DNA from: Oscillospiraceae bacterium
GTDB lineage: Bacteria > Bacillota > Clostridia > Oscillospirales > Oscillospiraceae
Direction of reading: 5' to 3'
Length of the DNA stretch: 42,651 nucleotides
Assembly (NCBI GenBank): GCA_902761635.1
Contig: CACWLG010000015.1
Coordinates: 1-42,651 of the forward strand
Shown piece after piece: positions 4,659-27,957 of this stretch. A program made the position numbers and the translations under genes. The notes under the pieces are model-generated. The model made no database searches. It worked only from the letters and a program-made list of their open reading frames with translations, and was not told where the DNA came from. Position 1 is the stretch's first letter. Each line of letters opens with the position of its first letter.

Positions 4659-4700
4659 AAAGAACCTCCGATCTGTGAGAATACGGATCGGAGGTTCTTT
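4659..4700. terminator. Bidirectional terminator between the DtxR-type gene and the 20-gene operon
   Basis: A perfect 15-bp inverted repeat (4659-4673 with 4686-4700) with A run on the left arm and T run on the right arm. It serves the rightward regulator gene and the leftward operon ending at 4710. Confidence 0.88.
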
Positions 4701-4709: not shown

Positions 4710-5501
4710 TTACTTTTTCCCGACCAGCAGCGCCGAGCCGGAGAGAGCCATCCACTTCGCCTCCCACGAGGACATGAACATGCCGTTTGTCGTGTCGATC
4801 AGCTCGACCTTTTCATAGCCCATACGCCGCAGAAGGCTGACGAAGGCAGCCATTTCCCCATATTTGGACTGGGAGAAGATGTCATGGAGGGCGAAGGTTC
4901 CGCCCTTTTTCAGCACCCGCAGCGTCTCAAGAAGGATTTTTTGCCTGTCGTGGCCGAGAATGTTGTGATAAACGTAGTTGCTGGTAACGGCGTCAAAGCT
5001 CTCGTCCGGGAAGTCCAGCTTCAGAGCGTCGCCCTGCCGGAACTCCGTGTTGCCGACGCCCTCGGCCTTGGCGTTTGCCTCGCACAGCGGTTTGTTGTAG
5101 GAGGCGTATTCCTTGCCCCAGCGGTCGATGCCGATAAAGCGTCCCTGCGGATTGCGTTTGGCACAGGCGATCGTCAGCGCGCCGCTTCCACAGCCGACGT
5201 CCAGACCCATGCCGCCTTCCGTAAGCTTGACATATTCGGCAATACCCTCGATGATCTGGCGGGACATCTGCCGCTTGCCGTCGTAGGAAAAGGCCTGATA
5301 CAGCAGTTCCATCCACAGCGCGGCTCCCCCGGCTGCTGCGCCCGCTGAAAGCAGGACTCCTGTCGCGGCTGTTTTCACGCTTTTATTTTTGATCAGACCT
5401 GTGCAGCCGCAGACAGCCGCCAATCCGAAGCATCCTGCCGCGCCTGCCGCGGTCCCCAGTACCATGCCCTTTGGCATCCAGTTCTTGTATTCCGGTTTCA
5501 T
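4710..5501 (-). CDS. Membrane-anchored class I SAM-dependent methyltransferase
   Basis: 263 residues. Two hydrophobic, Gly/Ala-rich N-terminal segments (about residues 13-36 and 44-70) should anchor it in the membrane; a Rossmann methyltransferase domain follows with motif I Leu-Asp-Val-Gly-Cys-Gly-Ser-Gly, the acidic ribose-binding Ile-Gly-Ile-Asp, a Gly-Asp-Ala motif and the post-motif Leu-Lys-Lys-Gly-Gly. This arrangement (two helices plus UbiE-like domain) is common in clostridial proteins of unknown substrate. Start 5501 is set by AAGGAGG seven bases upstream. It is the last of 20 genes in the leftward operon. Confidence 0.88.
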   Translation of the reverse strand: MKPEYKNWMPKGMVLGTAAGAAGCFGLAAVCGCTGLIKNKSVKTAATGVLLSAGAAAGGAALWMELLYQAFSYDGKRQMSRQIIEGIAEYVKLTEGGMGLDVGCGSGALTIACAKRNPQGRFIGIDRWGKEYASYNKPLCEANAKAEGVGNTEFRQGDALKLDFPDESFDAVTSNYVYHNILGHDRQKILLETLRVLKKGGTFALHDIFSQSKYGEMAAFVSLLRRMGYEKVELIDTTNGMFMSSWEAKWMALSGSALLVGKK

Positions 5502-5539
5502 AAGCTTGCCTCCTTGTATTATGTTTTTCTTCTGCATTT

Positions 5540-6037
5540 TTATTTCCCGATCCATACGGTGAGTAAGGCCATCAAGGCACAGACAAAGGGAAACGCGATC
5601 AGACGCTTTATCTGATTGCTCTTGTTGAAGCTGAGGTCATTCCAGCTTTTGCAGTCCTTTGTCTCGGGGAAAGAGCGAACAAAGTACTTCTTTCTGATCA
5701 CGATGTACTGATCCTGCACAAGGATATCGAACACCTTATATCCGTACATAAAAAGCATATACCTTCCAAAAATATGCCAGAAGCCGCAGCCGCGGCGGAG
5801 CGCGTCCGTGCCGATCAGGACGATCGCGCCGATATACGCAGCCGCAACGACCGCAGTAAGAAGATATCCGAGGATTCGCCTCTCCTTTGGCGGATCGGGG
5901 TGATCCTTTGCCGCCGCCCGAATGTCGGGCGGTAAAAAACTCATAAAGAGTTTTGTGGGAGCCAGGGGCGGAATCACGAGAATGAAGAACAGCGACATGG
6001 CGCAGACATAAGCCAAAGACGCGAGCGTTGTGATCAT
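5540..6037 (-). CDS. Small four-helix membrane protein, unknown function
   Basis: 165 residues with hydrophobic segments at about 5-25, 57-79, 88-104 and 146-163. The third segment is followed by Phe-Asp-Ile-Leu-Val-Gln-Asp-Gln-Tyr and then Ser-Phe-Pro-Glu-Thr-Lys-Asp, equivalent to motifs in the proteins at 213-713, 6784-7266 and 8997-9488. The start overlaps the stop of the upstream gene by four bases (ATGA). No enzyme motif is seen. Confidence 0.8.
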   Translation of the reverse strand: MITTLASLAYVCAMSLFFILVIPPLAPTKLFMSFLPPDIRAAAKDHPDPPKERRILGYLLTAVVAAAYIGAIVLIGTDALRRGCGFWHIFGRYMLFMYGYKVFDILVQDQYIVIRKKYFVRSFPETKDCKSWNDLSFNKSNQIKRLIAFPFVCALMALLTVWIGK

Positions 6038-6768
6038 GCCTTTTTCACCCCTTCTCCACGTTTTTCTATTTCCTGCAAAACGAGCTTTCTGCCGCCGAAG
6101 AACATCAGCATCCAGCCGAAGCTCTCAAAGCCGGAGACAAAACCGTTGAACGGCCAGGGGATCAAAAGCTCCGCCAGGTATCCGATTCCCGCGACGATCA
6201 GCGGCGAGGCCAGTATCCATGCTTTCTTAAGCGCAAAGGTCCCTCTCCAGATCAACGCGATCCAGCCGATCAGGACAGCAAGCTCGAAGGCAAAGAAGGT
6301 CACCCAATAGGGCACGATCTGAACCATATAGGTACGGTTCCATAGGGCCACCGCAAGATTCGTATTGCCTCCGGCAGCCTCAAAGATTACGTTGTAGTTA
6401 TGGATCAGCGTCCCGCACGCCAAATGGAAATACAAGAAGCACATGACGCCAAGGATCAGCCCGGCGATATAAAGCTTCAACAGCCGCCGATCCCATTTGT
6501 CTTTGCATCCGGGAAGTAAGAATTTCAGAAACGCCGCAAAAGGCAGCGCGGCGACGGTATAGCAGGCCGTACCGATCAGGCCGCCGATGTTGGACAGCGC
6601 GATGCGCCAGTCGGCGATGGTCAGCCAGCCGGAGGAGATCATTCCGGAGATCGCGTAGCTGTCCTTCGGCTCGATCCCCATGCAGTAGTCGCCGACCATT
6701 GCCAGCAGCATCCCGGGGATGATCCAAAGCATTCTCCGGTATGTCTTTTTCAGTTCCTCTGTTGTCAC
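6034..6768 (-). CDS. Seven-helix integral membrane protein, unknown function (DUF6796-like?)
   Basis: 244 residues, about seven hydrophobic segments and short loops, starting with GTG at 6768 (GGTGGGTGCAGG lies just upstream). Features are Gly-Asp-Tyr in the first helix region, His residues in the middle helices (Tyr-Phe-His-Leu-Ala, Leu-Ile-His-Asn-Tyr) and a Phe-Asn-Gly-Phe loop near the C-terminus. It reminds me of the uncharacterised DUF6796 family, which I cannot confirm. It sits between two members of the small four-helix family and overlaps the downstream one by four bases. Confidence 0.8.
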   Translation of the reverse strand: MTTEELKKTYRRMLWIIPGMLLAMVGDYCMGIEPKDSYAISGMISSGWLTIADWRIALSNIGGLIGTACYTVAALPFAAFLKFLLPGCKDKWDRRLLKLYIAGLILGVMCFLYFHLACGTLIHNYNVIFEAAGGNTNLAVALWNRTYMVQIVPYWVTFFAFELAVLIGWIALIWRGTFALKKAWILASPLIVAGIGYLAELLIPWPFNGFVSGFESFGWMLMFFGGRKLVLQEIEKRGEGVKKA

Positions 6769-6783
6769 CCTGCACCCACCCTT

Positions 6784-7266
6784 TCAAAGCAGCAATACAA
6801 CGATCCCGGCCACGACGGCTGCGCCGACGATCCAGATCAGCGTCAGGACGCCGCGTTTTTTCAGCACCTGCGGCCAGGTCTGAACAAAGGGGATCTCCTC
6901 GGTCCCGGGGATGATCCAAAAGCAGCTGTGCCCGACCCAAAGCCGGTCGATGACAAGGCCGTCGTACCAGTTCATGAGCTCCAGGAACAGCAGCGCCTGC
7001 CAGTAAGCGGGCCAAAAGATGTGGACGCCGTTCCAAACACCGATGATCAGCAGCAGCGCGGTCAGCATGACCAGAAAAAACGGGATCATGAAGCGTTTTC
7101 TTTTACGCGCCACGGTCTCCCGGTCTGTCAGGCCGAGCTTGAATACCTTTTCCTGTACGGGCTTCGGATAGAAATACAGTCCGTTGACTGCGTTATTTCC
7201 TACGGCAATCTTCACCATCAGGGTAAACAGGGCGCAGAAAAGGATCAGTTGAAGGAGGATCATCAT
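6784..7266 (-). CDS. Small four-helix membrane protein with W-(I)-IPGTE motif
   Basis: 160 residues, hydrophobic segments near 2-20, 62-79, 88-104 and 138-160. It shares with the protein at 8997-9488 a long common core: Asn-Ala-Val-Asn or Gly-Ala-Val-Asn near the N-terminus, an Asp-Arg-(Leu/Phe) helix end, Trp-Val-Gly-His, then Ile-Pro-Gly-Thr-Glu. The two are clear paralogues. Start 7266 overlaps the stop of the hydrolase gene upstream (ATGA). Alternation of these proteins with alpha/beta hydrolases suggests they are functional partners, which is inference. Confidence 0.82.
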   Translation of the reverse strand: MMILLQLILFCALFTLMVKIAVGNNAVNGLYFYPKPVQEKVFKLGLTDRETVARKRKRFMIPFFLVMLTALLLIIGVWNGVHIFWPAYWQALLFLELMNWYDGLVIDRLWVGHSCFWIIPGTEEIPFVQTWPQVLKKRGVLTLIWIVGAAVVAGIVVLLL

Positions 7267-8201
7267 TTTTTGCCCGCCCATTCCCGAAGCGCTTTTTTCA
7301 GCCTTCTGTCGATATCAAGTCGCGTTTCCCGGCATTCCTTCGGATGCTCTTTTCCGGCCCGGAACATGAAGCTCACCAGCAAGGAAGAGCCCACCGGAAG
7401 CATCAGCTTCAGCATGGACTCGGGAAAAGCAAAATGTGTCCCGTTCTGATAGAGCCAGGCCTCAAATACGCTCTCGTGAGGTGTTTGACGCAGACGCTGC
7501 TCCATGCGGCGAATATATTTACAGGTATCCCAAAGCACATCGTCCTCCGCACCGGCGCAGATCACTCTGCCGCGGATCCGCTCGACCTTGATTTTTTCCT
7601 CCTCCCGCAACGGGTGACGGCGCTCCGACTCGTCGAACATTTTCCGGGATGCGATCTTATCGCCGCCCGCTTTGGATTCCTGCATGATCTTCTGCCAGTA
7701 TTCCGGATGCCGGTAGGCGTAGGGCAAATACGGCAATGGCCGTCCCTGCCAGGAGACCGAGGACTCGTTGTCACCCGGCCGCTCGCGCATGCCGTCCCGT
7801 CCGTCCTGATAAAAGCCTTCCATGACGAAATCCGGCGGCGACACGGCAACCGTCAGGCTGATCTCCGGGTAGTACGACGCGGCCACGAGCGCCAGCATGC
7901 CCGTGGTGGACGCGCCGACGATCCCGATCTTTTCACAGCCCTGAGATTTCAAAAACTCGATTGCTTTCCCAAAACGTTCCAGCGGGTAATTGTGATGACC
8001 GTAATCCTTCCTGTCGGGCGACATGGCCAGGGCGTGGCAGCCTTGACGGTGCAGCCACTTCGCGGCCGAGACCGCCATGCGATCCTCGGAGGAATCCCCC
8101 AACATGAGGATCATGGCACAATTCGTCTTTTTTGCGCCTTGCAGCGGGTACCATGCTCCGCAAAACCCATCCCGCTGAGGCGTGAACGTCTGTTTCTTCA
8201 T
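7263..8201 (-). CDS. Alpha/beta hydrolase, BAAT C-terminal-like
   Basis: 312 residues, no signal peptide, so cytoplasmic. The nucleophile elbow is Gly96-Ala-Ser98-Thr-Thr-Gly; candidate acid is the Asp in Ala-Gly-Ala-Glu-Asp-Asp and candidate base the His in Asn-Gly-Thr-His-Phe. Overall layout resembles the C-terminal domain of acyl-CoA thioesterases and bile acid-CoA:amino acid N-acyltransferases (BAAT_C). It could be a thioesterase, esterase or acyltransferase; the substrate is unknown. GGGAGGCAGGAA precedes the ATG. It overlaps neighbours by four bases on both sides. Confidence 0.85.
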   Translation of the reverse strand: MKKQTFTPQRDGFCGAWYPLQGAKKTNCAMILMLGDSSEDRMAVSAAKWLHRQGCHALAMSPDRKDYGHHNYPLERFGKAIEFLKSQGCEKIGIVGASTTGMLALVAASYYPEISLTVAVSPPDFVMEGFYQDGRDGMRERPGDNESSVSWQGRPLPYLPYAYRHPEYWQKIMQESKAGGDKIASRKMFDESERRHPLREEEKIKVERIRGRVICAGAEDDVLWDTCKYIRRMEQRLRQTPHESVFEAWLYQNGTHFAFPESMLKLMLPVGSSLLVSFMFRAGKEHPKECRETRLDIDRRLKKALREWAGKK

Positions 8202-8947
8202 TTCCTGCCTCCCATAAAAGCCTCGATCTGCTCGACATATTCCTTCGGATGCGCCGCTATGTAGCCGCAGTGTGCAAAACCCTTTCGGATCGTCAGCTCT
8301 GCTTTCGGCATATAGACCGGGATCGTCTTTCTGGAATACAGCCAGTCAAAATCTTTTTCCCCAAAGTCCAGATGTAGCTTTTTCTGTTGGGCATCTGTCA
8401 TCGGACGCAGGTCATAGTGACAGCAGGCAGCGCAGATCGCATCGATATCCTCTGATGTGATACGCAGAAAGTTCTGTGTCATCATCTCCGCAAAACTATA
8501 GCCGTACATCTTGACAAGGCTTTTTGACACCTTTACCGGTTTCCTTGCCAGCTTTCTCTTCCGGCTGCGGAACAGCCTTTTCATAAACCACTCGGCAAAG
8601 GCGGCATTTCGGCACAGCGCCACGCCGTCGAACCATGCATGCTCTACCGTAAAATCTCTGTCGAGGAACAACCGGTACGCGAGCGCGACACCGAGGGACG
8701 CGCCGTAGACGAGTTTGATATACCTGCATCCGGTTTCCATCAGCCAGGCCTTGAGTTCAGCATATTCCTCATCCGCACCGGCATATCTGCCCGACACCCC
8801 ATGGCCGCCCTGATCCGGCGCGACGAAATGAAAGCTCCCCTTGAAATGGGGCGACATCAGCCCGTAGAGATCTGTCCCGGAAACCATCATTGGAGAGAGA
8901 AGGATCACGGTCGGGTCATCCCGGTTGCCGTATTCATGGATGAACAT
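8198..8947 (-). CDS. Alpha/beta hydrolase
   Basis: 249 residues, single alpha/beta-hydrolase domain. The nucleophile elbow is Tyr81-Gly-Ala-Ser84-Leu-Gly; the Ser-Pro-Met-Met loop near residue 18 would form the oxyanion hole, and the Cys/His pair in Phe-Ala-His-Cys-Gly near the C-terminus supplies the catalytic His. A basic cap segment (Arg/Lys-rich, residues about 122-145) is unusual. ATG 8947 has AAAGGA upstream; the stop overlaps the next gene. Substrate unknown. Confidence 0.86.
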   Translation of the reverse strand: MFIHEYGNRDDPTVILLSPMMVSGTDLYGLMSPHFKGSFHFVAPDQGGHGVSGRYAGADEEYAELKAWLMETGCRYIKLVYGASLGVALAYRLFLDRDFTVEHAWFDGVALCRNAAFAEWFMKRLFRSRKRKLARKPVKVSKSLVKMYGYSFAEMMTQNFLRITSEDIDAICAACCHYDLRPMTDAQQKKLHLDFGEKDFDWLYSRKTIPVYMPKAELTIRKGFAHCGYIAAHPKEYVEQIEAFMGGRK

Positions 8948-8996
8948 CAGTTTCAGCGTCCTTTCCTTTTGTCTCCCATGATCAAGTTTCTTTCAT

Positions 8997-9488
8997 TTAT
9001 TTCAACAAAAGCGTCATGATCCCGGACAGGATCGCCGAAAGCACGGCAAAGCCGACGGTACCAAGCAGCCATTTTCCGAGCTTGTCTTTTCGGTCGATAT
9101 AAGGCCGCATGTCCTCTGTGCCGGGGATGACCCATGCCTTTGTGTGCCCGACCCAGTATTCGTCGATGAAGAAACGGTCGATCAGATTTACAATGGAGAG
9201 GATCGCAAAGCTCTGCCAAAAGGCCGTCCAGAAGCCCCGCGCGCCATTCACAAGGTAGACGCTGACGAGGATAAAAACGAGATAGACCGGGATGCCCAGG
9301 CTTTTGAACAGACGCCTGTTTTTGACGATCTGCCCGGGCGTGATAAGACCGTTTTGTATGCAGCGTTCCTGCACATCCGCATGGTACAGAAAGACCATGT
9401 TGACCGCGCCTTTTCGGATGCCGACCGCGCAGAAAACGACCAGCAGCGTGCCGAGCAGCAAGCCCTCCATGACGATCTTCCCGATCAT
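8997..9488 (-). CDS. Small four-helix membrane protein, paralogue of 6784-7266
   Basis: 163 residues with hydrophobic segments at about 8-24, 68-84, 90-104 and 142-162. Same core as the 6784-7266 protein: Gly-Ala-Val-Asn, Asp-Arg-Phe, Tyr-Trp-Val-Gly-His-Thr, Ile-Pro-Gly-Thr-Glu-Asp. It overlaps the upstream hydrolase gene by four bases, with GGGAGGG inside that gene as ribosome site, and is 49 bases from the next hydrolase gene. The two paralogues each sit next to a hydrolase gene, which suggests module duplication within the operon. Confidence 0.82.
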   Translation of the reverse strand: MIGKIVMEGLLLGTLLVVFCAVGIRKGAVNMVFLYHADVQERCIQNGLITPGQIVKNRRLFKSLGIPVYLVFILVSVYLVNGARGFWTAFWQSFAILSIVNLIDRFFIDEYWVGHTKAWVIPGTEDMRPYIDRKDKLGKWLLGTVGFAVLSAILSGIMTLLLK

Positions 9489-10258
9489 GGTGTATTCCCT
9501 CCCAAAAAATGTCTGATCTCCGCGGCCATCCGATCCGGGTGCGCGATGATCTCCCCGTGGCCGAAGCCGGGAAAGGGATGGAACTCCGCGTTGGGGAAAG
9601 CGCGTTTCAGCTTTTGCACCGCCTTTTTCATGTTCGGCTCCTTCGCTCCGTACCAGACGGCAACCTTGGCCGCGCCGTCGGGTTCATAGCGGTCAATCTC
9701 CTCATAGAGCCGCAGGCCTTCTCTGGCACAGTTTTGCAGGGTCTCCAACGAAATGTGGGGCGGTATCGCCGCGAACTGCCGCAGGAGTTTCTCGTCGTCT
9801 GTCCGGGTGTAGAGCTTGAGAAGCAGCGGCAGCTTTTTCTGTCTCTGGATCTTTCCCAGCAGACGGTATTGATTGCGCGGGATGCCATACGTCACAAAGC
9901 CGTTGAAGAGCCCAAGATCCATATACTGCGGTCCGCTCAGGATCAGGGAATCCACCCGCACGCGCTGCCGGTGAAAGAGCGTGCCTGCCGTGGCGCAGCC
10001 GAAGGACTCGCCGAATACCAGCTCGACCTGCCCGTTAAGCTCTTCCTGTATGTATGCCTCCAGCTTCTCCGCCGAGGCCTCCGCCGTGGTGAAAACGCTT
10101 TGTCCCGTGCCGTCATAGCCGTCCGTGCTGACGGCGATCACATGGTAATCATTTGAAAGCAGCGGGATCACGTTCTCGAATTGCCGCCAGCTCATCATAT
10201 TGCCGGGGATCAGGACGATCCTCCGGCTGTTTTCTTTTCCGAATTCAACGACTTCCAT
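9485..10258 (-). CDS. Alpha/beta hydrolase
   Basis: 257 residues. Nucleophile Gly83-Glu-Ser85-Phe-Gly, oxyanion region Ile-Pro-Gly-Asn near residue 17, C-terminal His in Gly-Phe-Gly-His-Gly. A longer open frame upstream (to 10480) is not used: the upstream methyltransferase gene stops at 10261, and GGAG eight bases before ATG 10258 fixes the start. It has the compact layout of esterases and lipases of the alpha/beta-hydrolase_6 type. The substrate is unknown. Confidence 0.86.
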   Translation of the reverse strand: MEVVEFGKENSRRIVLIPGNMMSWRQFENVIPLLSNDYHVIAVSTDGYDGTGQSVFTTAEASAEKLEAYIQEELNGQVELVFGESFGCATAGTLFHRQRVRVDSLILSGPQYMDLGLFNGFVTYGIPRNQYRLLGKIQRQKKLPLLLKLYTRTDDEKLLRQFAAIPPHISLETLQNCAREGLRLYEEIDRYEPDGAAKVAVWYGAKEPNMKKAVQKLKRAFPNAEFHPFPGFGHGEIIAHPDRMAAEIRHFLGGNTP

Positions 10259-10260
10259 CC

Positions 10261-10845
10261 TTACTCCTTCTGAAAGCGGAAATATCCTTCCAGCCCGAGG
10301 TCGATCGCTTTCTTCACGGTACGGAAGCCGCGCCCGTTGGCCTCCCGTTCCAGCTCCTCGAAGCTGAACAGCGCCTCCTCGGCGTGATCCCAGTGGAGCA
10401 GAGCGTCCACAATGTGGATACAGCTTCTCGACAGGTCGGCGATATAGATGCAGCCGCCGTCCTTCAGTAAACGCCGGCACTCGTCAAAGAAAGAGCGCCA
10501 GCCCTCCACGTGATGAAGGATGCAGAAATCCAGCACCGCGTCGAAGCTCCCGTCCGGGAAGGCACCGAGATCATCCGCGCTGCCCTCCACGAACCGGGCG
10601 TTTGGCAGCTTCTTGTCGCGGGCAAGCGTCAGCTGCTCCGGCATGATGTCCAGCCCCGTGTAGCTGCGCGGGGCCTCCGCCGTGATCAGCGAAGCGGCGC
10701 AGCCCGAGCCGCAGCCGACCTCCAGGATGTCCCGATCTTTGATATAGAGGCCGAACTTCCGAAAGGTGGGCAGCTCGATCCTGCGGATGTACCACTTGCG
10801 GAAGCCGCTCTGCATGGCCTCGAATTCTCTTGGGCACAGTTTCAT
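10261..10845 (-). CDS. Class I SAM-dependent methyltransferase
   Basis: 194 residues, soluble. Motif I is Leu-Glu-Val-Gly-Cys-Gly-Ser-Gly, with Gly-Leu-Asp-Ile for the adenosine ribose, Asp-Gly-Ser-Phe-Asp-Ala-Val and Leu-Lys-Asp-Gly-Gly downstream: the UbiE/type-11 group. ATG 10845 overlaps the stop of the upstream hydrolase gene (ATGA) and has AAGGAG eight bases before it. The C-terminus (Leu-Glu-Gly-Tyr-Phe-Arg-Phe-Gln-Lys) suggests a complete protein. Substrate unknown. Confidence 0.88.
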   Translation of the reverse strand: MKLCPREFEAMQSGFRKWYIRRIELPTFRKFGLYIKDRDILEVGCGSGCAASLITAEAPRSYTGLDIMPEQLTLARDKKLPNARFVEGSADDLGAFPDGSFDAVLDFCILHHVEGWRSFFDECRRLLKDGGCIYIADLSRSCIHIVDALLHWDHAEEALFSFEELEREANGRGFRTVKKAIDLGLEGYFRFQKE

Positions 10846-11756: not shown

Positions 11757-11790
11757 AAGCTTGTCATTCCTTTCTCGCAGGGATAGGTGT

Positions 11791-12471: not shown

Positions 12472-12489
12472 ATCTTTTCTTCGCTGACT

Positions 12490-13272
12490 TCAGTTCTCAT
12501 ATCCCATACATCGGTCGATCATATCCAGCACAGGCTTTTTCCATTTCTCGTCATAGAGCCAGACCTCGTGCTTCATGTCAAATTCATGGATATCCGGATC
12601 GCGGAAGTGCCGACGGTAGCGTTTGCCGTATTTCTCACCCATCTGCAGGGCGTAGACGATGTGTACCGTCGTGCCGTCCACATGGATATCGTCCTCCAGC
12701 GGCGTGATGTAGTCCGAATAAAACTCGCGGCTGATGGTCCTGGGGTTGAGCGTTTTCATGTTGTCGATGAAATCGTTGGCGAACTCCAGCGATTTGTCTC
12801 CGTCTCCGATCGCGCCCTTTTTCCGCAGCTTTGCCTTGAGCTTCGCGCGCTTCTTCTCACTGGTGCAGGCGCCGGAGAGCATGGGGCCGACGATGGCGGT
12901 CAGCAGACGCGCGGTGAGCTTTCCGCCCTGATCCAGATCGGAGGAGCCGATAAAGCCGTGGTCGATATGAATACGCTTTCTCTGAATGAGCAGGCCCACA
13001 AAGCTGCCGCCGAGGGAGGAGCCGTAAGCCCCGTCCACGCGGCCGCCGTGCTTTTCAAGGAAATAGTCCTCGATCTTCTCCGTGACCGTGAGCATATCGG
13101 TGAAAATCACCTTGGGATCGCCCTCGAAGCCGTCATAATTGACGGCGATCAGGCGATACTTCTCCGCCAGCTCGTCCAGGACGTTCTTGAAGTTGAGCTG
13201 CCAGGTGCAGGCCGTGCCCGGCAGGAGCAGCAGCGTTTTGCCGTCCGGTTTTCCGAACTCTGTGAATTGCAT
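12490..13272 (-). CDS. Alpha/beta hydrolase
   Basis: 260 residues. Nucleophile elbow Tyr-Gly84-Ser-Ser86-Leu-Gly-Gly, oxyanion region Leu-Pro-Gly-Thr near residue 19, likely acid in the Asp-Pro-Asp stretch and a His-Glu-Phe-Asp region near the C-terminus. The last His of a canonical triad is not obvious to me. A Lys/Arg-rich insertion (about residues 120-140) resembles that of the 8198-8947 protein. The start is ATG 13272 with AGGAAGG upstream; the TTG six bases earlier overlaps the previous stop. Confidence 0.82.
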   Translation of the reverse strand: MQFTEFGKPDGKTLLLLPGTACTWQLNFKNVLDELAEKYRLIAVNYDGFEGDPKVIFTDMLTVTEKIEDYFLEKHGGRVDGAYGSSLGGSFVGLLIQRKRIHIDHGFIGSSDLDQGGKLTARLLTAIVGPMLSGACTSEKKRAKLKAKLRKKGAIGDGDKSLEFANDFIDNMKTLNPRTISREFYSDYITPLEDDIHVDGTTVHIVYALQMGEKYGKRYRRHFRDPDIHEFDMKHEVWLYDEKWKKPVLDMIDRCMGYEN

Positions 13273-13274
13273 CG

Positions 13275-13880
13275 TCAAGCCTTCCTCTCACATTCCGCGT
13301 ACATCAGGGTGATGCGCGCCGCCATCTCTTTGGAGAAAGTCACGCGCCAGCCGTGAGCCTCCAGCCACGCCAGATACTCCGCACCGGTCCACTGGTGCTC
13401 GAAGCGGACGCCCGCCAGCACCAGAATGCCTGACCAGAGCCGGCTCAGTAGAGTGCCCTTGTGCTCCACAAAGTTCGGTGCGATCAGGATGCCGCCCGGA
13501 CGCAACACACGGTCGATTTCCCGCAGAGCCTTTTCCGGTTCCGGGATGATGTGCAGGGCGTTTGCGATCAGCACGGCGTCGAAGGAACCGTCCGCATAGG
13601 GCAGCTTTGTGGCGTCCGCGACCTCAAAGCGCAGATTGGCCGGGCGGTCGCCCTTCTTCGCCTGGGCGATCATGCCGTCGGAATAGTCCGTAGCCAGCAT
13701 CGTTCTGGCCGCAGGAGCCACATGCTTGGCCAGCAGCCCCGGCCCGGTGGCGATCTCCAGCACGTCCCTGTCCCGGATGACGGCGGGGATCCGCTCATAC
13801 ATGAACGTATAGATCCGCTGATCCGCCCGCATGGCCCGCTCGTAGATCGGCGCGTATAAGTCCCAGGTCGTTTTCTTCAT
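13275..13880 (-). CDS. Class I SAM-dependent methyltransferase
   Basis: 201 residues. Motif I is Leu-Glu-Ile-Ala-Thr-Gly-Pro-Gly, the variant seen in Ubi/Coq5-type methyltransferases of clostridia; Ala-Thr-Asp-Tyr-Ser follows as the acidic ribose contact, then Asp-Ala-Thr, Asp-Gly-Ser-Phe-Asp and Leu-Arg-Pro-Gly-Gly. ATG 13880 is preceded by AGGAG. The N-terminal Trp-Asp-Leu-Tyr-Ala-Pro-Ile-Tyr helix is typical. It lies two bases from the hydrolase gene downstream and four from the methyltransferase gene upstream. Substrate unknown. Confidence 0.88.
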   Translation of the reverse strand: MKKTTWDLYAPIYERAMRADQRIYTFMYERIPAVIRDRDVLEIATGPGLLAKHVAPAARTMLATDYSDGMIAQAKKGDRPANLRFEVADATKLPYADGSFDAVLIANALHIIPEPEKALREIDRVLRPGGILIAPNFVEHKGTLLSRLWSGILVLAGVRFEHQWTGAEYLAWLEAHGWRVTFSKEMAARITLMYAECERKA

Positions 13881-13884
13881 CGTT

Positions 13885-14508
13885 CTATCTCCTCGCAAGC
13901 ACACAGATCCACGGCTTCTTGCTGTGGTGAACGGCACGCACCTCCGAGAAGCCTGCTTTTCGCAGAGCGGCTTCCAACTCCTCCGCGGTGTAGCATCTCA
14001 TGCCTTCGATGATCTTCTCAAACTTCTTGCCTGTGGCGTCAAGGCCGTCCGATTCGTTGCAGATCAGGAAATACCCGCCTGGCTTGAGGACGGACGCGAC
14101 CTGTGCAAAGCATTTCTCCAGTCCCGGCCAGAAATAGACCGTTTCAAAAGCCGTGGCAAGGTCGAAGCTCTCTTTCGGCAGCGCAAGCTCGGACACATCG
14201 CCCTGCCGCAGCGTACAGCGTCCGGCATCGATGCTCTTCCTGTTATAGGCCGTCGCTTTCTCCACGGAGAGCGCGGAATAGTCGATGGCCGTCACATGGG
14301 CGGAGGGAAAGCTTTTCAGCAGCTCTCCCGCGTTTCGTCCCGCACCGCAGCCGAGGTCAACGATCTGCGCCGCCTGCATCGGCGGCAGGTGCCCAAAGCC
14401 CCAGTCCGCGAGCTCCCCGTGACCGCTGTTCATGCCGCGCAGCATCAGCGCGCCGAGAACGCCCTCCGGCTTCCTTGTCTGATTGAAAAAGCGTTTCAAA
14501 AGACCCAT
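13885..14508 (-). CDS. Class I SAM-dependent methyltransferase
   Basis: 207 residues. Motif I is Val-Asp-Leu-Gly-Cys-Gly-Ala-Gly, followed by Ala-Ile-Asp-Tyr-Ser, Gly-Asp-Val, Ser-Phe-Asp-Leu and Leu-Lys-Pro-Gly-Gly. The N-terminus (basic, Phe-Phe-Asn-Gln) and the Met-Asn-Ser-Gly-His stretch before motif I are shared by a broad group of clostridial methyltransferases without known substrate. Start 14508 has AAGGAG eleven bases upstream; longer upstream frame is noncoding overlap with the neighbour. Confidence 0.88.
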   Translation of the reverse strand: MGLLKRFFNQTRKPEGVLGALMLRGMNSGHGELADWGFGHLPPMQAAQIVDLGCGAGRNAGELLKSFPSAHVTAIDYSALSVEKATAYNRKSIDAGRCTLRQGDVSELALPKESFDLATAFETVYFWPGLEKCFAQVASVLKPGGYFLICNESDGLDATGKKFEKIIEGMRCYTAEELEAALRKAGFSEVRAVHHSKKPWICVLARR

Positions 14509-14521
14509 CGTTTTCTTCTCC

Positions 14522-15154
14522 TTATATGCTTTTTGTCCGCTCCCAGCCGTCCCCGGCGTCGGTCTCGTGCCGGACGAAAAGAAAGTCGCAGAGATCACCG
14601 CCCTGGCAGAGCGTTTTGGTACGGATGAAATCCGTGTAGGGCAGGCTGCCGTAGTTGATGATATCCGCATGGCAGCACATGGTGCCCAGCTTAAGCAGGC
14701 CGCGCCGACTGAGGATCTTCTGGTAGATGCACTCGTTGCACTCAAAATGAAAACGATCTTGGGGATCGTCCCCGTGCCAGGTGTAGCGCCAGCCATAGCC
14801 GGAACCCTTTTTAAAGCCGAAAGGTACGATCTTCTTCATCAGCGGCAGGAAAAAGCGCTTTTGAGCCAGCTTCTGCATCCCGGATGGGTCGAGGAACTTC
14901 CACATCTCCTCCGAAACTGTCTTATAAGCGTCCTCTTCGCTCCTTCCATGTCGCTGCAGCACTTCGTAAATGGCAATGGAGGACAGTATCTGCGCCATAT
15001 GCTTGTAGTTGCCCTTGTCGCAGTAGATCTTTTCTTCCTCGATCAGCTCACGCATACGGGCATAGATATCGGATTTGATCTCCTCCGGCAGCGTGGGGAA
15101 GTAATTCTGATACCGGCTGACACGAACCATTGCTTCAGGCGTGTATGCTTTCAT
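14522..15154 (-). CDS. ATC-hydrolase-like protein (L-2-amino-thiazoline-4-carboxylate hydrolase family)
   Basis: 210 residues. The C-terminal half carries family hallmarks: Phe-Glu-Cys-Asn-Glu-Cys, Cys-Cys-His-Ala-Asp, and Leu-Cys-Gln-Gly-Gly-Asp-Leu-Cys-Asp-Phe, with conserved Cys, Asp and His that could form an active site. The namesake enzyme opens the thiazoline ring of L-2-amino-thiazoline-4-carboxylate in cysteine formation; most family members are untested. No signal peptide. The second family member in the operon is at 16940-17572. In an iron-regulated setting, thiazoline-bearing metallophores are conceivable substrates, which is speculation. Confidence 0.8.
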   Translation of the reverse strand: MKAYTPEAMVRVSRYQNYFPTLPEEIKSDIYARMRELIEEEKIYCDKGNYKHMAQILSSIAIYEVLQRHGRSEEDAYKTVSEEMWKFLDPSGMQKLAQKRFFLPLMKKIVPFGFKKGSGYGWRYTWHGDDPQDRFHFECNECIYQKILSRRGLLKLGTMCCHADIINYGSLPYTDFIRTKTLCQGGDLCDFLFVRHETDAGDGWERTKSI

Positions 15155-15167
15155 GCGTCTCTTCTCC

Positions 15168-15848
15168 TCACTTCACGCAGCGGAAGATGCCCTCCGCGCG
15201 GACAGAGTGTACCTCAACCTCGGCATACAGTTCGTGCAGGCGCGATCCCAAACTGCCGATCGTCTCAAAGGGCGGGGTGAAGAAGCCTTTGGGAACATAC
15301 ATGCGCCGCACAAACCAGTCCGTGCGACCGAAGCGTCCGGCAATATAGAAGCAGCCGCAGAAGATCCCGCCGGGTTTCAGGACACGGAAGGTCTCACGGA
15401 ACGCGGCGTCCTTGTCCGGGAAGGCGTGGAAACCATTGAGCGAAAGCACGAGGTCAAAGCTCTCATCCGCAAAGGGCAGCGCGCCCACGTCGCCCTGCAC
15501 GAACGACACGTTGGATACCCCCATGCGTGATGCGCGCTTTTTCGCGTTTTCCATCATGTCGGCGGAGTAGTCAAGGCATGTTACCTTTGCCTCCGGAAGG
15601 GAGGCATAGAGCGGCATCGTCAGCACGCCTGTGCCTACCGGCACCTCCAGGAGACTCCCGGAGAAGCCCTCCGGGATCGGCGCGAGCGCGTCCTCGATCC
15701 ATTTTGCCGCCAGCTCTTTATCCAATCCCCAAACCAGGCTGTCCATCAGCTTGCCCAGGAGCGTAGAGCGGGTGATGATCCCGTCATAAAGATTGCCGAA
15801 TTCGCCGAGCTCCTTGTAGGACCGGCGGATCTCGTCATGTCGTGTCAT
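15168..15848 (-). CDS. Class I SAM-dependent methyltransferase
   Basis: 226 residues. Motif I is the variant Leu-Glu-Val-Pro-Val-Gly-Thr-Gly, followed by Cys-Leu-Asp-Tyr-Ser, Gly-Asp-Val-Gly, Asp-Glu-Ser-Phe-Asp and Leu-Lys-Pro-Gly-Gly. The later segment with Gly-Arg-Thr-Asp and Val-Pro-Lys-Gly-Phe-Phe may contact the substrate. ATG 15848 overlaps the upstream stop (ATGA). This subtype (EVPVGTG) is frequent in gut clostridia, usually annotated only by domain. Confidence 0.87.
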   Translation of the reverse strand: MTRHDEIRRSYKELGEFGNLYDGIITRSTLLGKLMDSLVWGLDKELAAKWIEDALAPIPEGFSGSLLEVPVGTGVLTMPLYASLPEAKVTCLDYSADMMENAKKRASRMGVSNVSFVQGDVGALPFADESFDLVLSLNGFHAFPDKDAAFRETFRVLKPGGIFCGCFYIAGRFGRTDWFVRRMYVPKGFFTPPFETIGSLGSRLHELYAEVEVHSVRAEGIFRCVK

Positions 15849-16687
15849 AGCGTTTCCCCCTTGAAGACGATCTTTACGATCTTCATATTCACCAGGCTGT
15901 CGCAGAAGCGGATCATCAGCTTGTGGAACAGCCCCACGTCTTTGTAGATGTCCCGATAGCCGCGCATATAGCTCTTTGCCGTCACAGAGGCGAAACGATC
16001 GCTCCACGCCTCCAGTTCTTTCTCGTCCTCCAAAGAGAAGAAAGCGCTCACATCGGTGATCCCGGCCTCTTTGAGCCAGGTCTTTCGCATCAGCTTCGCG
16101 CCGCGCTCATTGCAGGAATCGAAGGCCAGCACCGCGCCGGGAAAGTGTTCCGCCATGGCGGAGAACAAGCGCTTGACGTCCTCGGTTTTGAAGTAGTAGA
16201 ACACGCCGGCCGCAAAGAACACCGCGCCGTTTGAGCCGTCGATCGCGTCCATCCACGCGAAGTCGTTGAGATCGCAGGCGAGATTTGTTTCCCTCTCCCC
16301 GGCGGGCAGCAGCTCGTTTCGCACCGCGATCACGTCTGCAAAATCGAGGTTATATCCCCGGCAGCGGCAGTTGTCCACCTTGGAAAAGGTGTCGTCCAGC
16401 CCGCAGCCGAGATTGACCACGGCGGCCTCCGGATGATCCTTCAGATAGGCCTCGACCTCGCAGCGCAGGTCGTACTGCCGCTGCGCCACCTCCAGCGCCC
16501 CGAAGAGCCCGGCCGGGGATTCCATCTTCTTCCGCTTTTCCGCGAAGTCATAGTCCAATGAATCGCAGATGCGCTTCGCCTCCGGGTCTGAGAAGAGCTC
16601 CGGAAAACGCTCGGAGCACACCAGCCGCGCGAAGAGCGGGATGATCAGCGTCTCCTGTACCGTATTTTTCTCGATGTGATATTTCAC
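15845..16687 (-). CDS. Methyltransferase of the leucine carboxyl methyltransferase (LCM/PpM) type
   Basis: 280 residues. It differs from the other five methyltransferases: N-terminal extension (Thr-Val-Gln-Glu-Thr-Leu, Asp-Pro-Glu-Ala), then Val-Asn-Leu-Gly-Cys-Gly-Leu-Asp-Asp-Thr as motif I and Gly-Tyr-Asn-Leu-Asp as the acidic strand, with Glu-Arg-Glu-Thr-Asn and Ala-Gly-Val-Phe-Tyr-Tyr-Phe later. These are hallmarks of the LCM family, which O-methylates carboxylates, including those of small natural products and polyketide intermediates. It overlaps both neighbours by four bases. Substrate unknown. Confidence 0.85.
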   Translation of the reverse strand: MKYHIEKNTVQETLIIPLFARLVCSERFPELFSDPEAKRICDSLDYDFAEKRKKMESPAGLFGALEVAQRQYDLRCEVEAYLKDHPEAAVVNLGCGLDDTFSKVDNCRCRGYNLDFADVIAVRNELLPAGERETNLACDLNDFAWMDAIDGSNGAVFFAAGVFYYFKTEDVKRLFSAMAEHFPGAVLAFDSCNERGAKLMRKTWLKEAGITDVSAFFSLEDEKELEAWSDRFASVTAKSYMRGYRDIYKDVGLFHKLMIRFCDSLVNMKIVKIVFKGETL

Positions 16688-16935
16688 CGGCTGAACCAGC
16701 CCTTCTTCTCATAGGGAGCGGATTCCACACCCAGGCAGGTATAGCCCGTTGCGGCGATGGCGTCTTTCAAATAGTTCTCATCAACGGCTGTCTCCGAGAG
16801 GAAGCTTGCCTCGCCCTTTGTATGGGAAGCGGAGACCTTCTTCGCCCCGGGGACGGCCTTGCGGATCACGTCGCCCAAATGCGCCTCGCACATGGAGCAC
16901 ATCATCCCGTCGATCTTCAATGTTGTTTTGATCAT
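16684..16935 (-). CDS. HMA domain protein
   Basis: 83 residues: a ferredoxin-fold metal-binding domain with Gly-Met-Met-Cys13-Ser-Met-Cys16, closer to the canonical GMxCxxC than the copy at 791-1009, with a short basic C-terminal tail. It should bind a thiophilic metal (Cu(I), Zn(II) or Fe(II)). GGAGATAAAAAC precedes the ATG at 16935. It sits between the ATC-hydrolase-like and LCM genes and overlaps the latter by four bases, so its product is made together with these enzymes; a link between metal binding and their reaction is possible. Confidence 0.88.
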   Translation of the reverse strand: MIKTTLKIDGMMCSMCEAHLGDVIRKAVPGAKKVSASHTKGEASFLSETAVDENYLKDAIAATGYTCLGVESAPYEKKGWFSR

Positions 16936-16939
16936 GTTT

Positions 16940-17572
16940 TTATCTCCTTTTCTTATACCCGCAGTCGCAGTACGGCCCGCCGGAGGCCAGGGTGTACTGC
17001 CGCACGAACTTCGTCGCGCCACCCGTCTCGCTCATCGTGTAGTCCAGACGGCACATGGCGGGGACGAGATCGGCAAGCCCCAGCTCGCCCATCAGCGTGC
17101 AGATGCCGCATTTTGAGAAACGGGCCTCGTATCCGCTGCCGTCGGGATAGGGCAGGAATTCCATGTTCCAGGAATAGGGGTTGCGGTCCGCGGCGTTCAG
17201 CGCGGCGGTCTTTTTCATGCCCTCGACGTCTTTGTCGCTGAACTTCTTTTTCCCGCTCTTCCGGCAGAACCATTTCATAGGTTTTGTCATCATGGCTGCT
17301 GCATAGTATTTCGTCAGTTCATCCACATTCGGTCGTTTCGGCATGTTCAGCACGAAAGCCGCGAGCATGGCGCAGCTGACAATATTCATCTGAAACCGGT
17401 CCCCCTTTTCAAAATCGGGGAGCTTCCCGATCAGCTCGCGGTATTTGCCGTGGGCTTTCTTGGTGATCTCCTCCGCTGTGGGGCGGCCATAGCCCAGCAC
17501 CTCCGTCAGCTTGCTTCGAAAGCTTTTGGCGAAAAGCGCCCACATCCCTGCGGGCAGGCCCGCAACCCTCAT
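16940..17572 (-). CDS. ATC-hydrolase-like protein, second copy
   Basis: 210 residues. Family features: Pro-Asp near residue 53, Ser-Lys-Cys-Gly-Ile-Cys, Leu-Val-Pro-Ala-Met-Cys, Leu-Asp-Tyr, then Gly-Gly-Pro-Tyr-Cys-Asp-Cys near the end. It is diverged from the 14522-15154 protein but the order of Cys/Asp motifs is the same. ATG 17572 overlaps the stop of the MBL gene. The family is defined by L-2-amino-thiazoline-4-carboxylate hydrolase; the true substrate here is unknown. Confidence 0.82.
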   Translation of the reverse strand: MRVAGLPAGMWALFAKSFRSKLTEVLGYGRPTAEEITKKAHGKYRELIGKLPDFEKGDRFQMNIVSCAMLAAFVLNMPKRPNVDELTKYYAAAMMTKPMKWFCRKSGKKKFSDKDVEGMKKTAALNAADRNPYSWNMEFLPYPDGSGYEARFSKCGICTLMGELGLADLVPAMCRLDYTMSETGGATKFVRQYTLASGGPYCDCGYKKRR

Positions 17573-18438
17573 GGCAAAAACACCTTCTTTTTCAGCCTCT
17601 CCGTGCGCGCCTTTTCCTCCGTGTCGTCATCCTCCACATAGCCGTCGAAGGGCGCTTCGGGATCGCTGTATTTCTTTGCGAAAGGTTTACATAATTTATC
17701 CCTGTGTCGGAACGCAAGGTCGAGATCGTCTGTCCAGCCCGTATGCCCGGTGATGATTTTCAGCGGCCTGCTTCGGGCCCGGAGAGTTGCCTCCAGCTTT
17801 TCCAGGGACTTTACCGCCAGCTTGTTGTCCTCCGCCAGCGTGGAAAGAAAGCTGTAGCCTCCGTCCACGCCGAACCAGATCGTATCGCCGGTGAAGAGAT
17901 ATTCGTCGTCAATGAGATAGACCATATGTCCCCAGGTGTGACCGGGGACCAGCAGGCCTTCGATCTTGATATCGCCTATCTGAAAGATCTCGCCGTCGCG
18001 CAGCAAAACCTTTTCGTTCTCCATTTTGACCAGCGGCAGCTTGTACAGGCCGTAGATGACTCTGCGCCTGGTCTCAGCGGTCAGATAACGGTTCTCGATC
18101 TCTCCGATATAGACCGTCGCGTTTTTGAAAAGCTGCTCGCTGTCCATCTCCAATGCACCGACATGGTCCGTGTCCTGGTGCGTGATGAGGATATGTTGAA
18201 TGGTCGCCGGGTCGATGTCCAGCCAGGCCATCTTCTCCCGCAGACGGTCATAGTTGTAGCCCGCGTCGATCATGACTGTCGTGCCGTTTTTCGTGTAAAA
18301 GAAGATGTTGGCGACCCACTCCCGCACACAGGCGACGCGATCGTCGATCCGGCCCGTATTGAGAGGCTTGAAGATCGCTCTGCCGCGAAACATCCTGCTC
18401 ATAGACTTCTTTTGGTTTTCCGAATCCGTTTTTGCCAT
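17569..18438 (-). CDS. MBL-fold metallo-hydrolase, first gene of the 20-gene operon
   Basis: 289 residues. Metal-binding motif His87-Gln-Asp89-Thr-Asp91-His92 replaces the second His of the usual HxHxDH by Asp, a variant seen in a subset of the superfamily. Further ligands: His167 (and His171), Asp185 and His232, so two metal sites are possible. No signal peptide. Enzymes with this fold hydrolyse thioesters, lactones, phosphodiesters or act in redox; substrate not deducible. The C-terminus is highly charged. AGAGGAG lies seven bases before ATG 18438. Preceded by the operator-overlapped promoter at 18536-18563. Confidence 0.88.
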   Translation of the reverse strand: MAKTDSENQKKSMSRMFRGRAIFKPLNTGRIDDRVACVREWVANIFFYTKNGTTVMIDAGYNYDRLREKMAWLDIDPATIQHILITHQDTDHVGALEMDSEQLFKNATVYIGEIENRYLTAETRRRVIYGLYKLPLVKMENEKVLLRDGEIFQIGDIKIEGLLVPGHTWGHMVYLIDDEYLFTGDTIWFGVDGGYSFLSTLAEDNKLAVKSLEKLEATLRARSRPLKIITGHTGWTDDLDLAFRHRDKLCKPFAKKYSDPEAPFDGYVEDDDTEEKARTERLKKKVFLP

Positions 18439-18513: not shown

Positions 18514-18531
18514 AATTAAATTTCTCTAACT
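18514..18531 (-). promoter_or_regulatory. DtxR-type operator of the 20-gene operon
   Basis: Minus strand reads AGTTAG, six bases, TTAATT: the left half differs by one base from GGTTAG and the right half equals that of the site at 21570-21587. It begins four bases after the -10 box of the leftward promoter, at the expected transcription start, as at the other sites. Confidence 0.55.
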
Positions 18532-18535: not shown

Positions 18536-18563
18536 AGTATAGCACAGCGACCGCTGTTTGAAA
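18536..18563 (-). promoter_or_regulatory. Promoter of the 20-gene operon
   Basis: Minus-strand -35 TTTCAA (18563-18558), 16-bp spacer, -10 TATACT (18541-18536). No other promoter as good is visible between the first gene and the divergent regulator. Confidence 0.55.
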
Positions 18564-18590
18564 AGCCTTTTTTAACCCTTCTTCCGGAAC

Positions 18591-18639: not shown

Positions 18640-18660
18640 ATTGCATTGGAGGTGTTAGCA

Positions 18661-27956: not shown

Positions 27957-27957
27957 G

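What the first reader, a model, noticed from the sequence alone, without database searches (positions are those of the whole stretch)
4710..18438. A 20-gene operon of methyltransferases, alpha/beta hydrolases and small membrane proteins under an iron-type operator
Six methyltransferases of distinct subtypes and five distinct hydrolases, plus ATC-hydrolase-like, MBL, CPBP, HMA and membrane proteins, run without a gap over 50 bases, from one promoter to one strong terminator. No NRPS, PKS, carrier protein or precursor peptide is present, so it does not look like a standard biosynthetic cluster. Diversity of enzymes per class rather than copies suggests sequential modification or breakdown of a complex small molecule, or a lipid. 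This is the best candidate for an undescribed system in the window.
Basis: partly seen in the sequence, partly recalled or inferred. Interest (0 to 1): 0.85.

Follow-up and report, generated by a model that had tools for sequence, protein, structure and literature searches.

The report
Iron-switched operon of small-molecule-modifying enzymes
A gut bacterium keeps twenty genes for enzymes and small membrane proteins together under what looks like an iron-sensing switch, next to iron importers; relatives carry reshuffled versions of the same gene kit, probably to process iron-carrying molecules.

Summary
In detail: 20 minus-strand ORFs (4710-18438), gaps -4 to 49 nt, a promoter-like site (18564-18536) and a strong hairpin (4659-4700). 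The iron-type operator is conserved: besides the DtxR box at 18622, a degenerate box sits directly downstream of the operon's -10 (18514-18531), also in 4 of 5 related promoters, one weakly. A DtxR box (<=2 mismatches) lies upstream of 20 of 49 such operon runs, against 0 of 165 control genes.

It is not a fixed pathway but one draw from a shuffled kit of about 11 families: 59 kit runs in 47 loci, window included; none in 20 control stretches. It lies in an iron island: two FeoB, two DtxR, flavodoxin, a P1B6-like ATPase/DUF6110 pair, and three ABC pairs; for 3 of 4 half-transporters tested the nearest solved half-transporter is YbtP or YbtQ. The operon holds no scaffold-building enzyme.

Best reading (0.45): an iron-starvation-induced cytoplasmic kit that dismantles or caps imported iron chelates. 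Regulation is inferred from sequence; substrate and transport direction are unproven.

The parts
4659..4700 (.). Terminator-like hairpin (19 pairs) between the operon end and convergent dtxR1
4710..5501 (-). g01 class I SAM methyltransferase, N-terminal extension
5540..6037 (-). g02 small membrane protein of the new family (alignment A1)
6034..6768 (-). g03 DUF6796 membrane protein
   Evidence: PF20599, 1.8e-26
6784..7266 (-). g04 small membrane protein, same family as g07
7263..8201 (-). g05 alpha/beta hydrolase, BAAT_C-like
8198..8947 (-). g06 alpha/beta hydrolase (GASLG); Pfam match below cut-off
8997..9488 (-). g07 small membrane protein; invariant D104, nearly invariant D109; predicted with pLDDT 95
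9485..10258 (-). g08 alpha/beta hydrolase (GESFG)
10261..10845 (-). g09 class I SAM methyltransferase
10842..11756 (-). g10 HSL-type alpha/beta hydrolase (GTSSG)
11791..12471 (-). g11 CPBP/Rce1-like membrane protease family
12490..13272 (-). g12 alpha/beta hydrolase without Pfam match (GSSLG)
13275..13880 (-). g13 class I SAM methyltransferase
13885..14508 (-). g14 class I SAM methyltransferase
14522..15154 (-). g15 ATC_hydrolase-family protein
   Evidence: PF14196, 7.3e-17
15168..15848 (-). g16 class I SAM methyltransferase
15845..16687 (-). g17 LCM-like methyltransferase
16684..16935 (-). g18 HMA metallochaperone-like protein (MMCSMCEAH)
16940..17572 (-). g19 ATC_hydrolase-family protein; model resembles H-NOX/TRAPPC3/PoxR-sensor folds
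17569..18438 (-). g20 metallo-beta-lactamase-fold protein, first gene of the operon, HxDxDH instead of HxHxDH
18514..18531 (-). Degenerate DtxR-type box (4 mismatches) directly downstream of the operon's -10, conserved in position
18536..18564 (-). Promoter-like site of the operon (TTTTCA-17-TATACT, TG before the -10)
18622..18639 (.). DtxR box, one mismatch, directly downstream of the perfect dtxR2 promoter-like site (18591-18618)
18646..19074 (+). dtxR2, iron-dependent repressor family
19068..20042 (+). AraC-family regulator
20255..20800 (+). DUF3793 protein
20834..21247 (+). Flavodoxin
21627..21890 (+). DUF6110 protein, overlapping the start of the P1B-ATPase
   Evidence: 1.4e-29
21890..23971 (+). 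P1B-type ATPase with an HN motif (P1B6-like) and an arginine-rich N terminus
   Evidence: HN criterion from PMC9374683
24284..26140 (+). FeoB2 (618 aa)
26154..29700 (+). ABC pair abc1-abc2; nearest solved half-transporters YbtP and YbtQ
31136..31153 (.). Perfect DtxR box before abc3-abc4
31174..34637 (+). ABC pair abc3-abc4 (abc4: Sav1866 slightly above YbtQ; abc3 not searched)
36779..36796 (.). Perfect DtxR box before abc5-abc6
36816..40294 (+). ABC pair abc5-abc6; abc5 nearest YbtQ/YbtP/IrtA (abc6 not searched)
4150..4167 (.). Perfect DtxR box between feo genes and dtxR1
4220..4645 (+). dtxR1, iron-dependent repressor family
1322..3613 (-). FeoB1 (763 aa)

Best explanation
The operon is one version of a modular, DtxR-repressed enzyme kit used under iron starvation. 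Most likely mechanism: iron chelates (foreign siderophores, or phenolic/catecholic or tetrapyrrole-like chelators of the gut) enter through the YbtPQ/IrtAB-type ABC pairs of the same locus. In the cytoplasm the alpha/beta hydrolases and the MBL protein cut ester, amide or lactone bonds; the ATC-family proteins, whose predicted fold resembles aromatic- and heme-binding domains, bind or open the ligand; the methyltransferases cap the freed hydroxyl, carboxyl or thiol groups so that they no longer chelate. Flavodoxin may reduce the iron, the HMA protein may carry it, and the P1B/DUF6110 pair may move it into a store. Each species holds a different draw of the kit to match the chelates it meets. 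Supported by sequence: the operon layout, its boxes, the iron island, the ABC relationships, the kit shuffling. Inferred: repression itself, direction of transport, substrate, every catalytic step, the capping role of methylation, iron (not manganese) as the co-repressor.
For: Operator: three perfect GGTTAGN6CTAACC boxes and one with one mismatch in the window; the operon's own box keeps its place in 4 of 5 compared promoters (L008, L013, L092, weakly L012; not L044). Box <=2 mm from 300 nt upstream to 60 nt inside the first gene of 20 of 49 kit runs versus 0 of 165 control genes; any box <=1 mm in 23 of 46 kit loci and 11 of 20 DUF6110 loci versus 0 of 20 controls. Iron context: two FeoB, two DtxR, flavodoxin, P1B, DUF6110; kit genes share a run with DUF6110-P1B in L090 and sit beside them in L091. 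Kit-type genes lie in 8 of 20 DUF6110 loci versus 1 of 20 controls (counted). Importers: nearest solved half-transporter is YbtP for abc1, YbtQ for abc2, YbtQ/YbtP/IrtA for abc5. Adjacent ABC pairs in 12 of 31 kit loci >=15 kb versus 0 of 20 controls; in 7 of 8 loci inspected the pair is nearest abc1-abc2 (46-92% identity). ATC fold: the top Foldseek matches of g19 are H-NOX domains (E 6e-4), then TRAPPC3 and, weaker (E 0.07-0.2), the phenol/catechol sensors PoxR and MopR. ZIP transporters in 3 of 41 non-kit members scanned.
Against: No enzyme has a substrate-level match; family names are superfamily-level. Methyltransferases are not a known tool for releasing iron (recalled). For abc4 Sav1866 scores slightly above YbtQ (294 vs 288 bits), and full-length ABCB exporters score above every half-transporter in all four searches (probably because both halves add up), so import is not shown. 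24 of 46 kit loci hold no FeoB/DtxR/P1B/DUF6110/DUF3793/flavodoxin gene in the stretch fetched, and 6 of 20 controls do hold a P1B or FeoB match (read). 29 of 49 runs have no box <=2 mm, the window's two run fragments among them. Boxes <=1 mm also occur in 8 of 50 other loci that hold a query gene but no kit run. Two DtxR-family proteins are present and one may sense manganese.
Confidence: 0.45

Rival explanations
1. The kit makes a metallophore without NRPS, PKS or NIS synthetase. The enzymes tailor a small scaffold from central metabolism, and the ABC pairs export it or take the loaded form back. Shuffling diversifies the molecule against theft.
For: Iron-type operators; ABC pairs beside or inside kit operons; ketopantoate-reductase-like (5 of 41) and SDR (2 of 41) proteins among non-kit members; methylation is a usual tailoring step (recalled).
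Against: No ligase, carrier, synthetase or other scaffold-building family in the window operon, nor among the 25 of 36 families shown for 41 of 54 non-kit members.
Confidence: 0.2
2. The kit acts on membrane lipids or builds and tunes an iron-storing compartment (ferrosome-like) with the P1B/DUF6110 pair; small membrane proteins and lipid-type methyltransferases and hydrolases remodel the membrane.
For: DUF6110-P1B pair in the window; in one run with kit genes in L090 and directly beside them in L091; membrane proteins g02, g03, g04, g07; the best NCBIfam hits of g09 are lipid-type methyltransferases, far below cut-off; PEMT in 2 of 41 non-kit members.
Against: P1B is found in only 8 of 46 kit loci, and 12 of 20 DUF6110 loci hold no kit gene (counted). 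The small membrane family has no fold match at Foldseek E<=1.
Confidence: 0.12
3. Detoxification islands: TetR/AraC-sensed plant or drug compounds are modified by the enzymes and expelled by the ABC pairs; the iron link arises because many such compounds chelate iron.
For: TetR/AraC genes in 17 of 46 kit loci versus 3 of 20 controls; kit composition varies between loci; ABC proteins of exporter fold, abc4 nearest Sav1866.
Against: DtxR boxes upstream of kit operons and directly before two ABC pairs of the window; no drug-specific NCBIfam model reaches its cut-off for the 20 proteins (best 25 families shown per protein).
Confidence: 0.12
4. A tetrapyrrole (heme or chlorophyll-derived) utilisation system: ATC/H-NOX-fold proteins bind the macrocycle, hydrolases and methyltransferases act on its side chains.
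For: Foldseek top matches of g19 are H-NOX heme domains; an ATC-family gene, tolI, lies in the tolyporphin cluster (PMC8401325, one passage).
Confidence: 0.08

Closest known systems
YbtPQ (yersiniabactin) and IrtAB (mycobactin) uptake loci
   Same: Half-transporter pairs whose nearest solved half-transporters are YbtP/YbtQ for abc1, abc2, abc5; iron-type boxes; an AraC regulator nearby
   Different: No siderophore synthesis genes seen; 20 tailoring and membrane genes in the same island; import not shown
Intracellular siderophore hydrolases (Fes, IroD/IroE type; recalled)
   Same: Hydrolase-fold enzymes under an iron-type operator beside chelate-type transporters
   Different: Five alpha/beta hydrolases plus six methyltransferases, ATC-family and membrane proteins; no Fes/IroD family among the matches
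Ferrosome (fez) loci
   Same: DUF6110 protein followed by a P1B-ATPase with an HN motif, as in P1B6 systems (PMC9374683 passages)
   Different: Primary ferrosome papers not held; I know of no fez locus with this enzyme kit (recalled); DtxR-type boxes, whereas C. difficile fez genes are Fur-repressed (PMC12574912 passage)
ATC hydrolase (L-2-amino-thiazoline-4-carboxylate hydrolase) family PF14196
   Same: g15 and g19 score above the Pfam cut-off; C155, C174, D177 invariant in 62 of 62
   Different: Activity of these members unknown; fold resembles H-NOX/TRAPPC3/PoxR domains

Membership tests
DtxR-regulated iron operon | DtxR-type palindrome at the operon's own promoter | tested here: met
   Degenerate box 18514-18531 directly downstream of the -10, same place in 4 of 5 related promoters, one weakly; the window copy itself has 4 mismatches to the consensus
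DtxR-regulated iron operon | Repression by iron-loaded DtxR | not testable with these tools
   Needs binding and expression assays; Fe versus Mn not resolved
YbtPQ/IrtAB-type siderophore importer | Half-transporters (membrane domain plus ATPase) closest to YbtP/YbtQ/IrtA/IrtB | tested here: inconclusive
   abc1, abc2, abc5 yes among half-transporters; abc4 slightly nearer Sav1866; 4 of 6 tested; no tree made
YbtPQ/IrtAB-type siderophore importer | Transport of Fe-siderophore into the cell | not testable with these tools
   No assay possible
Ferrosome (fez) locus | P1B6-ATPase with HN motif | tested here: met
   LLHNSS near the C terminus of the 21890-23971 protein (read; criterion in PMC9374683); its place in TM6 was not mapped
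Ferrosome (fez) locus | Small membrane partner encoded with the ATPase | tested here: met
   DUF6110 at 21627-21890; that FezA is of this family is recalled, not tested
Ferrosome (fez) locus | Membrane-bound iron granules | not testable with these tools
   Needs electron microscopy
Siderophore/natural-product biosynthetic cluster | A scaffold-building enzyme (NRPS, PKS, NIS, ligase, carrier protein) | tested here: not met
   None in the 20 genes; none among the 25 of 36 families shown for 41 of 54 non-kit members of relatives
ATC hydrolase family PF14196 | Score above the curated cut-off | tested here: met
   g15 63 bits, g19 83.5 bits, cut-off 28.1
ATC hydrolase family PF14196 | Hydrolysis of the thiazoline ring | not testable with these tools
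   Needs enzyme assay
Anti-phage defence system | Match to a PADLOC model | tested here: inconclusive
   0 matches for the 10 of 20 proteins given, E<=1e-5; the other 10 were not given

The most novel reading that the evidence does not exclude
A combinatorial iron-acquisition system of a new kind: a pool of about 11 gene families from which Clostridia of the gut assemble DtxR-controlled operons in many different combinations. It releases iron from imported chelates by cutting and methyl-capping the ligand in the cytoplasm rather than by reduction or single-ester hydrolysis. It includes a membrane protein family without a Pfam match, with an acidic D-x4-D motif and a confidently predicted helical-bundle fold.
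Probability: 0.3. Interest if true: 0.85.

Novelty: new variant of a known kind. Interest (0 to 1): 0.66.

Why it matters
If right, anaerobic gut and rumen bacteria hold a large, unexamined set of enzymes that process iron chelates. This would give handles on competition for iron in the gut, on the fate of foreign siderophores and plant polyphenols, and on methylation as a way of disarming a chelator. It would also give a first testable role to several unnamed families (the small membrane family, DUF6796, gut ATC-family proteins) and to many superfamily-level 'methyltransferase' and 'hydrolase' annotations in Firmicutes.

Tried and rejected

Rejected: a standard NRPS/PKS/RiPP cluster and a fixed 20-step pathway. 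A defence system is thought unlikely (0 PADLOC matches for 10 of the 20 proteins). I first took the membrane-family match at 213-713 as possibly broken ('1 TGA'); the sequence shows that the TGA is its own stop.

Literature: the two primary ferrosome papers are not held; searches for the kit returned nothing, and those gave no description of it in the listings that I saw. Of papers I saw only passages (PMC11334425, PMC12574912, PMC9674144, PMC9374683, PMC8401325, PMC5847659, PMC10846271) or search listings.

Limits: loci were found with g12, ATC, membrane-family or DUF6110 queries, so totals are not frequencies. 136 of the 178 loci held were classified; the 42 left out (L001-L005, L047-L083) are short stretches around hits, many inside longer ones. 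The 20 control stretches were picked by me from 18 related genomes, not drawn by machine. Statistical tests ignore phylogeny. L007 and L045 share one operon sequence; L045 was dropped only from the adjacency and per-gene orthologue counts. Run calling cut some operons, the window's among them, at overlapping ORFs, so the 49 runs include internal starts and run ends are inexact. Of non-kit members 41 of 54 were scanned (13, mostly short, left out), with 25 of 36 families shown. DUF6110 loci: 20 of 36 places were fetched. The motif name R3 and the link FezA = DUF6110 are recalled.

Full report
What is there. The window is contig C15 of a draft genome (3.59 Mb, 176 contigs, 85.8% complete, 4.7% contaminated). 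On its minus strand 20 ORFs run from 18438 down to 4710 with gaps of -4 to 49 nt. In reading order: MBL-fold protein g20, ATC-family g19, HMA g18, LCM-like methyltransferase g17, methyltransferase g16, ATC-family g15, methyltransferases g14 and g13, alpha/beta hydrolase g12, CPBP g11, HSL-type hydrolase g10, methyltransferase g09, hydrolase g08, small membrane protein g07, hydrolases g06 and g05, small membrane protein g04, DUF6796 g03, small membrane protein g02, methyltransferase g01. A promoter-like site precedes g20 and a 19-pair hairpin follows g01; the scan as a whole found 8 promoter-like sites against 6.6 in shuffles and 25 terminator-like ones against 13.7. Several of the 20 are diverged paralogues of one another.

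The surroundings are an iron island. To the left lie feoB1 and dtxR1 with a perfect DtxR box between them; to the right dtxR2, an AraC regulator, DUF3793, flavodoxin, a DUF6110 gene overlapping a P1B-ATPase gene, feoB2 and three pairs of ABC half-transporters. DUF6110 proteins are typically encoded with P1B6 transporters (PMC9374683, passage), and the window's ATPase has the HN pair of residues given there for P1B6. C. difficile ferrosomes need the membrane protein FezA and the transporter FezB (PMC12574912, passage); that the window's pair corresponds to FezA and FezB is my inference with recalled support.

Operator. GGTTAGN6CTAACC occurs without mismatch at 4150, 31136 and 36779 and with one mismatch at 18622. 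Counting all matches up to three mismatches gives no excess over shuffles (8 against 8.3), so the strength lies in the near-perfect ones. The 18622 box belongs to the perfect promoter-like site of dtxR2. The operon has its own site: upstream of g20 and of its orthologues in L008, L013 and L092 the -10 TATACT is followed within a few bases by AGTTA-type half-sites forming a degenerate box, more weakly in L012; L044 does not align there but carries a one-mismatch box at 7706, upstream of its MBL gene. A box with at most two mismatches lies between 300 nt upstream and 60 nt inside the first gene of 20 of 49 kit runs, and of 0 of 165 promoter-proximal control genes; the window's own two run fragments are among the 29 without. 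Boxes with at most one mismatch occur in 23 of 46 kit loci, 11 of 20 DUF6110 loci, 8 of 50 other fetched loci without a kit run, and 0 of 20 control stretches.

A shuffled kit. g12 was sought in the genome collection and 38 loci came back; 14 of the 38 titles name a ruminant host and 16 more carry RUG names (rumen genomes, recalled). With loci found by ATC family, membrane family and DUF6110 searches and fetched (the last the controls), I classified the ORFs of 136 loci and the window with profiles built from the window proteins. 59 runs with at least three kit genes were found in 47 loci including the window: methyltransferases in 44 runs, alpha/beta hydrolases of the g06/g08/g12 type in 35, the small membrane family in 34, ATC in 33, DUF6796 in 23, LCM in 21, HSL in 18, MBL in 13, HMA and BAAT in 9 each, CPBP in 5. 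None of 20 control stretches holds two kit families; one holds an MBL match. The window's order is kept only in blocks: g20-g19-g18-g17-g16 (adjacent pairs in 4, 5, 6 and 8 other loci), g12-g11-g10-g09 (3, 3, 4) and g04-g03-g02 (2, 3); six of the 19 adjacencies were seen in no other locus. At 60% identity or more, L007 holds 14 of the 20 window genes, L009 13, L013 12, L008 11 and L012 10, anywhere in the stretch. L008 has the operon between dtxR and dtxR-feoB genes as in the window, and L092 shows kit genes on both sides of the feo genes. The same draft genome carries further kit runs on C40 and C50.

Co-occurrence in 150 genomes of the family: membrane family in 22, ATC in 29, DUF6110 in 31. 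Membrane family and ATC share 15 genomes (4.3 expected), membrane family and DUF6110 share 12 (4.5 expected), ATC and DUF6110 share 11 (6.0 expected), with nominal p of 4e-8, 1e-4 and 0.014, not corrected for descent. In 398 genomes of the phylum the membrane family is rare (6, two of them weak) while ATC is commoner (61, of which 56 over the cut-off).

Transporters. Among half-transporters of known structure, abc1 is nearest YbtP (304.6 bits), then IrtA (290) and MsbA (279); abc2 is nearest YbtQ (285.6); abc5 is nearest YbtQ, YbtP and IrtA (287-283), well above YheH and MsbA (248-247); abc4 is a little nearer Sav1866 (294) than YbtQ (288). abc3 and abc6 were not searched. Full-length eukaryotic ABCB proteins score higher in all four searches, probably because two halves add up. 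YbtPQ and IrtAB act in iron uptake (PMC10846271, passage). Adjacent ABC pairs occur in 12 of 31 kit loci of at least 15 kb (13 of all 46) and in 0 of 20 controls; in 7 of 8 loci inspected they are nearest abc1-abc2 at 46-92% identity, in L028 nearest abc5-abc6.

Protein details. The small membrane family (36 sequences) has an invariant Asp, a nearly invariant Asp five residues on and a frequent PGTE-like motif; the model of g07 is confident (pLDDT 95.1, pTM 0.87) but matches no solved fold convincingly. The g19 model (pLDDT 92.5) resembles H-NOX (E 6e-4), TRAPPC3 and, more weakly, the phenol/catechol sensors PoxR and MopR, as expected from a published link of ATC_hydrolase to HNOB and V4R domains (PMC5847659, passage). 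The MBL protein has HxDxDH in 17 of 17 sequences, the window's included and L007/L045 being the same. The HMA protein has an M-x-C-x-M-C-E type of motif and stands next to AraC-DUF6110-P1B in L148 and L157, and divergently in L145.

Interpretation. The island links iron-type boxes, chelate-type ABC pairs and a variable set of hydrolases, methyltransferases and ligand-binding-type proteins without a scaffold maker in the operon. The most economical reading is breakdown or inactivation of imported chelates under iron starvation. Biosynthesis of a metallophore, ferrosome or membrane work, detoxification and tetrapyrrole use remain open. Results against: 24 of 46 kit loci show no other iron gene in the stretch held, 6 of 20 controls do show a P1B or FeoB match, 29 of 49 runs lack a good box (some are runs cut inside operons), and no enzyme has a substrate-level assignment.

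Novelty. The listings of the searches showed no description of such operons in the held library, which lacks most subscription papers. I rate it a new variant of iron-acquisition loci, with a 0.3 chance that it is a kind of its own.

Noticed in passing
window 1-1009, minus strand: Downstream of feoB1 lie, read by eye, a second HMA-like protein (1009-791), a terminator-like hairpin (about 770-741), another intact member of the small membrane family (713-213; profile match) and the start of what looks like a further ATC-family protein (189 off the left edge): a second kit fragment beside the feo genes.
   Followed up: partly
window 17569-18438: The MBL protein has HxDxDH, in 17 of 17 sequences compared; a carboxylate at this place recalls flavodiiron proteins (recalled), so it may bind iron rather than zinc.
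   Followed up: partly
window 34674-35960: A protein with a lipoprotein-like N terminus and GLUG repeats follows abc4 in the island; possibly a surface binder of the transported chelate (family).
   Followed up: no
window 29826-30362: A small protein with a sub-threshold SRPBCC (Polyketide_cyc2) match sits between ABC pairs; a relative lies inside a kit run in L009.
   Followed up: no
L007 14206-15177, also L009, L045, L090, L096, L098: A ketopantoate-reductase-like protein recurs next to or in kit operons (6 loci in one cluster, L007 and L045 sharing one operon; ApbA in 5 of 41 scanned members); possible extra kit family.
   Followed up: partly
L045 (G000:C40) and L007: The C40 kit operon of the window's genome gives the same protein sequences as L007 from genome RUG10656 (seen for three membrane proteins); either a close strain or binning mixture.
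   Followed up: no
window 20035-20104: A 30-nt inverted repeat (80% complementary) at the end of the araC gene, possibly a terminator.
   Followed up: no
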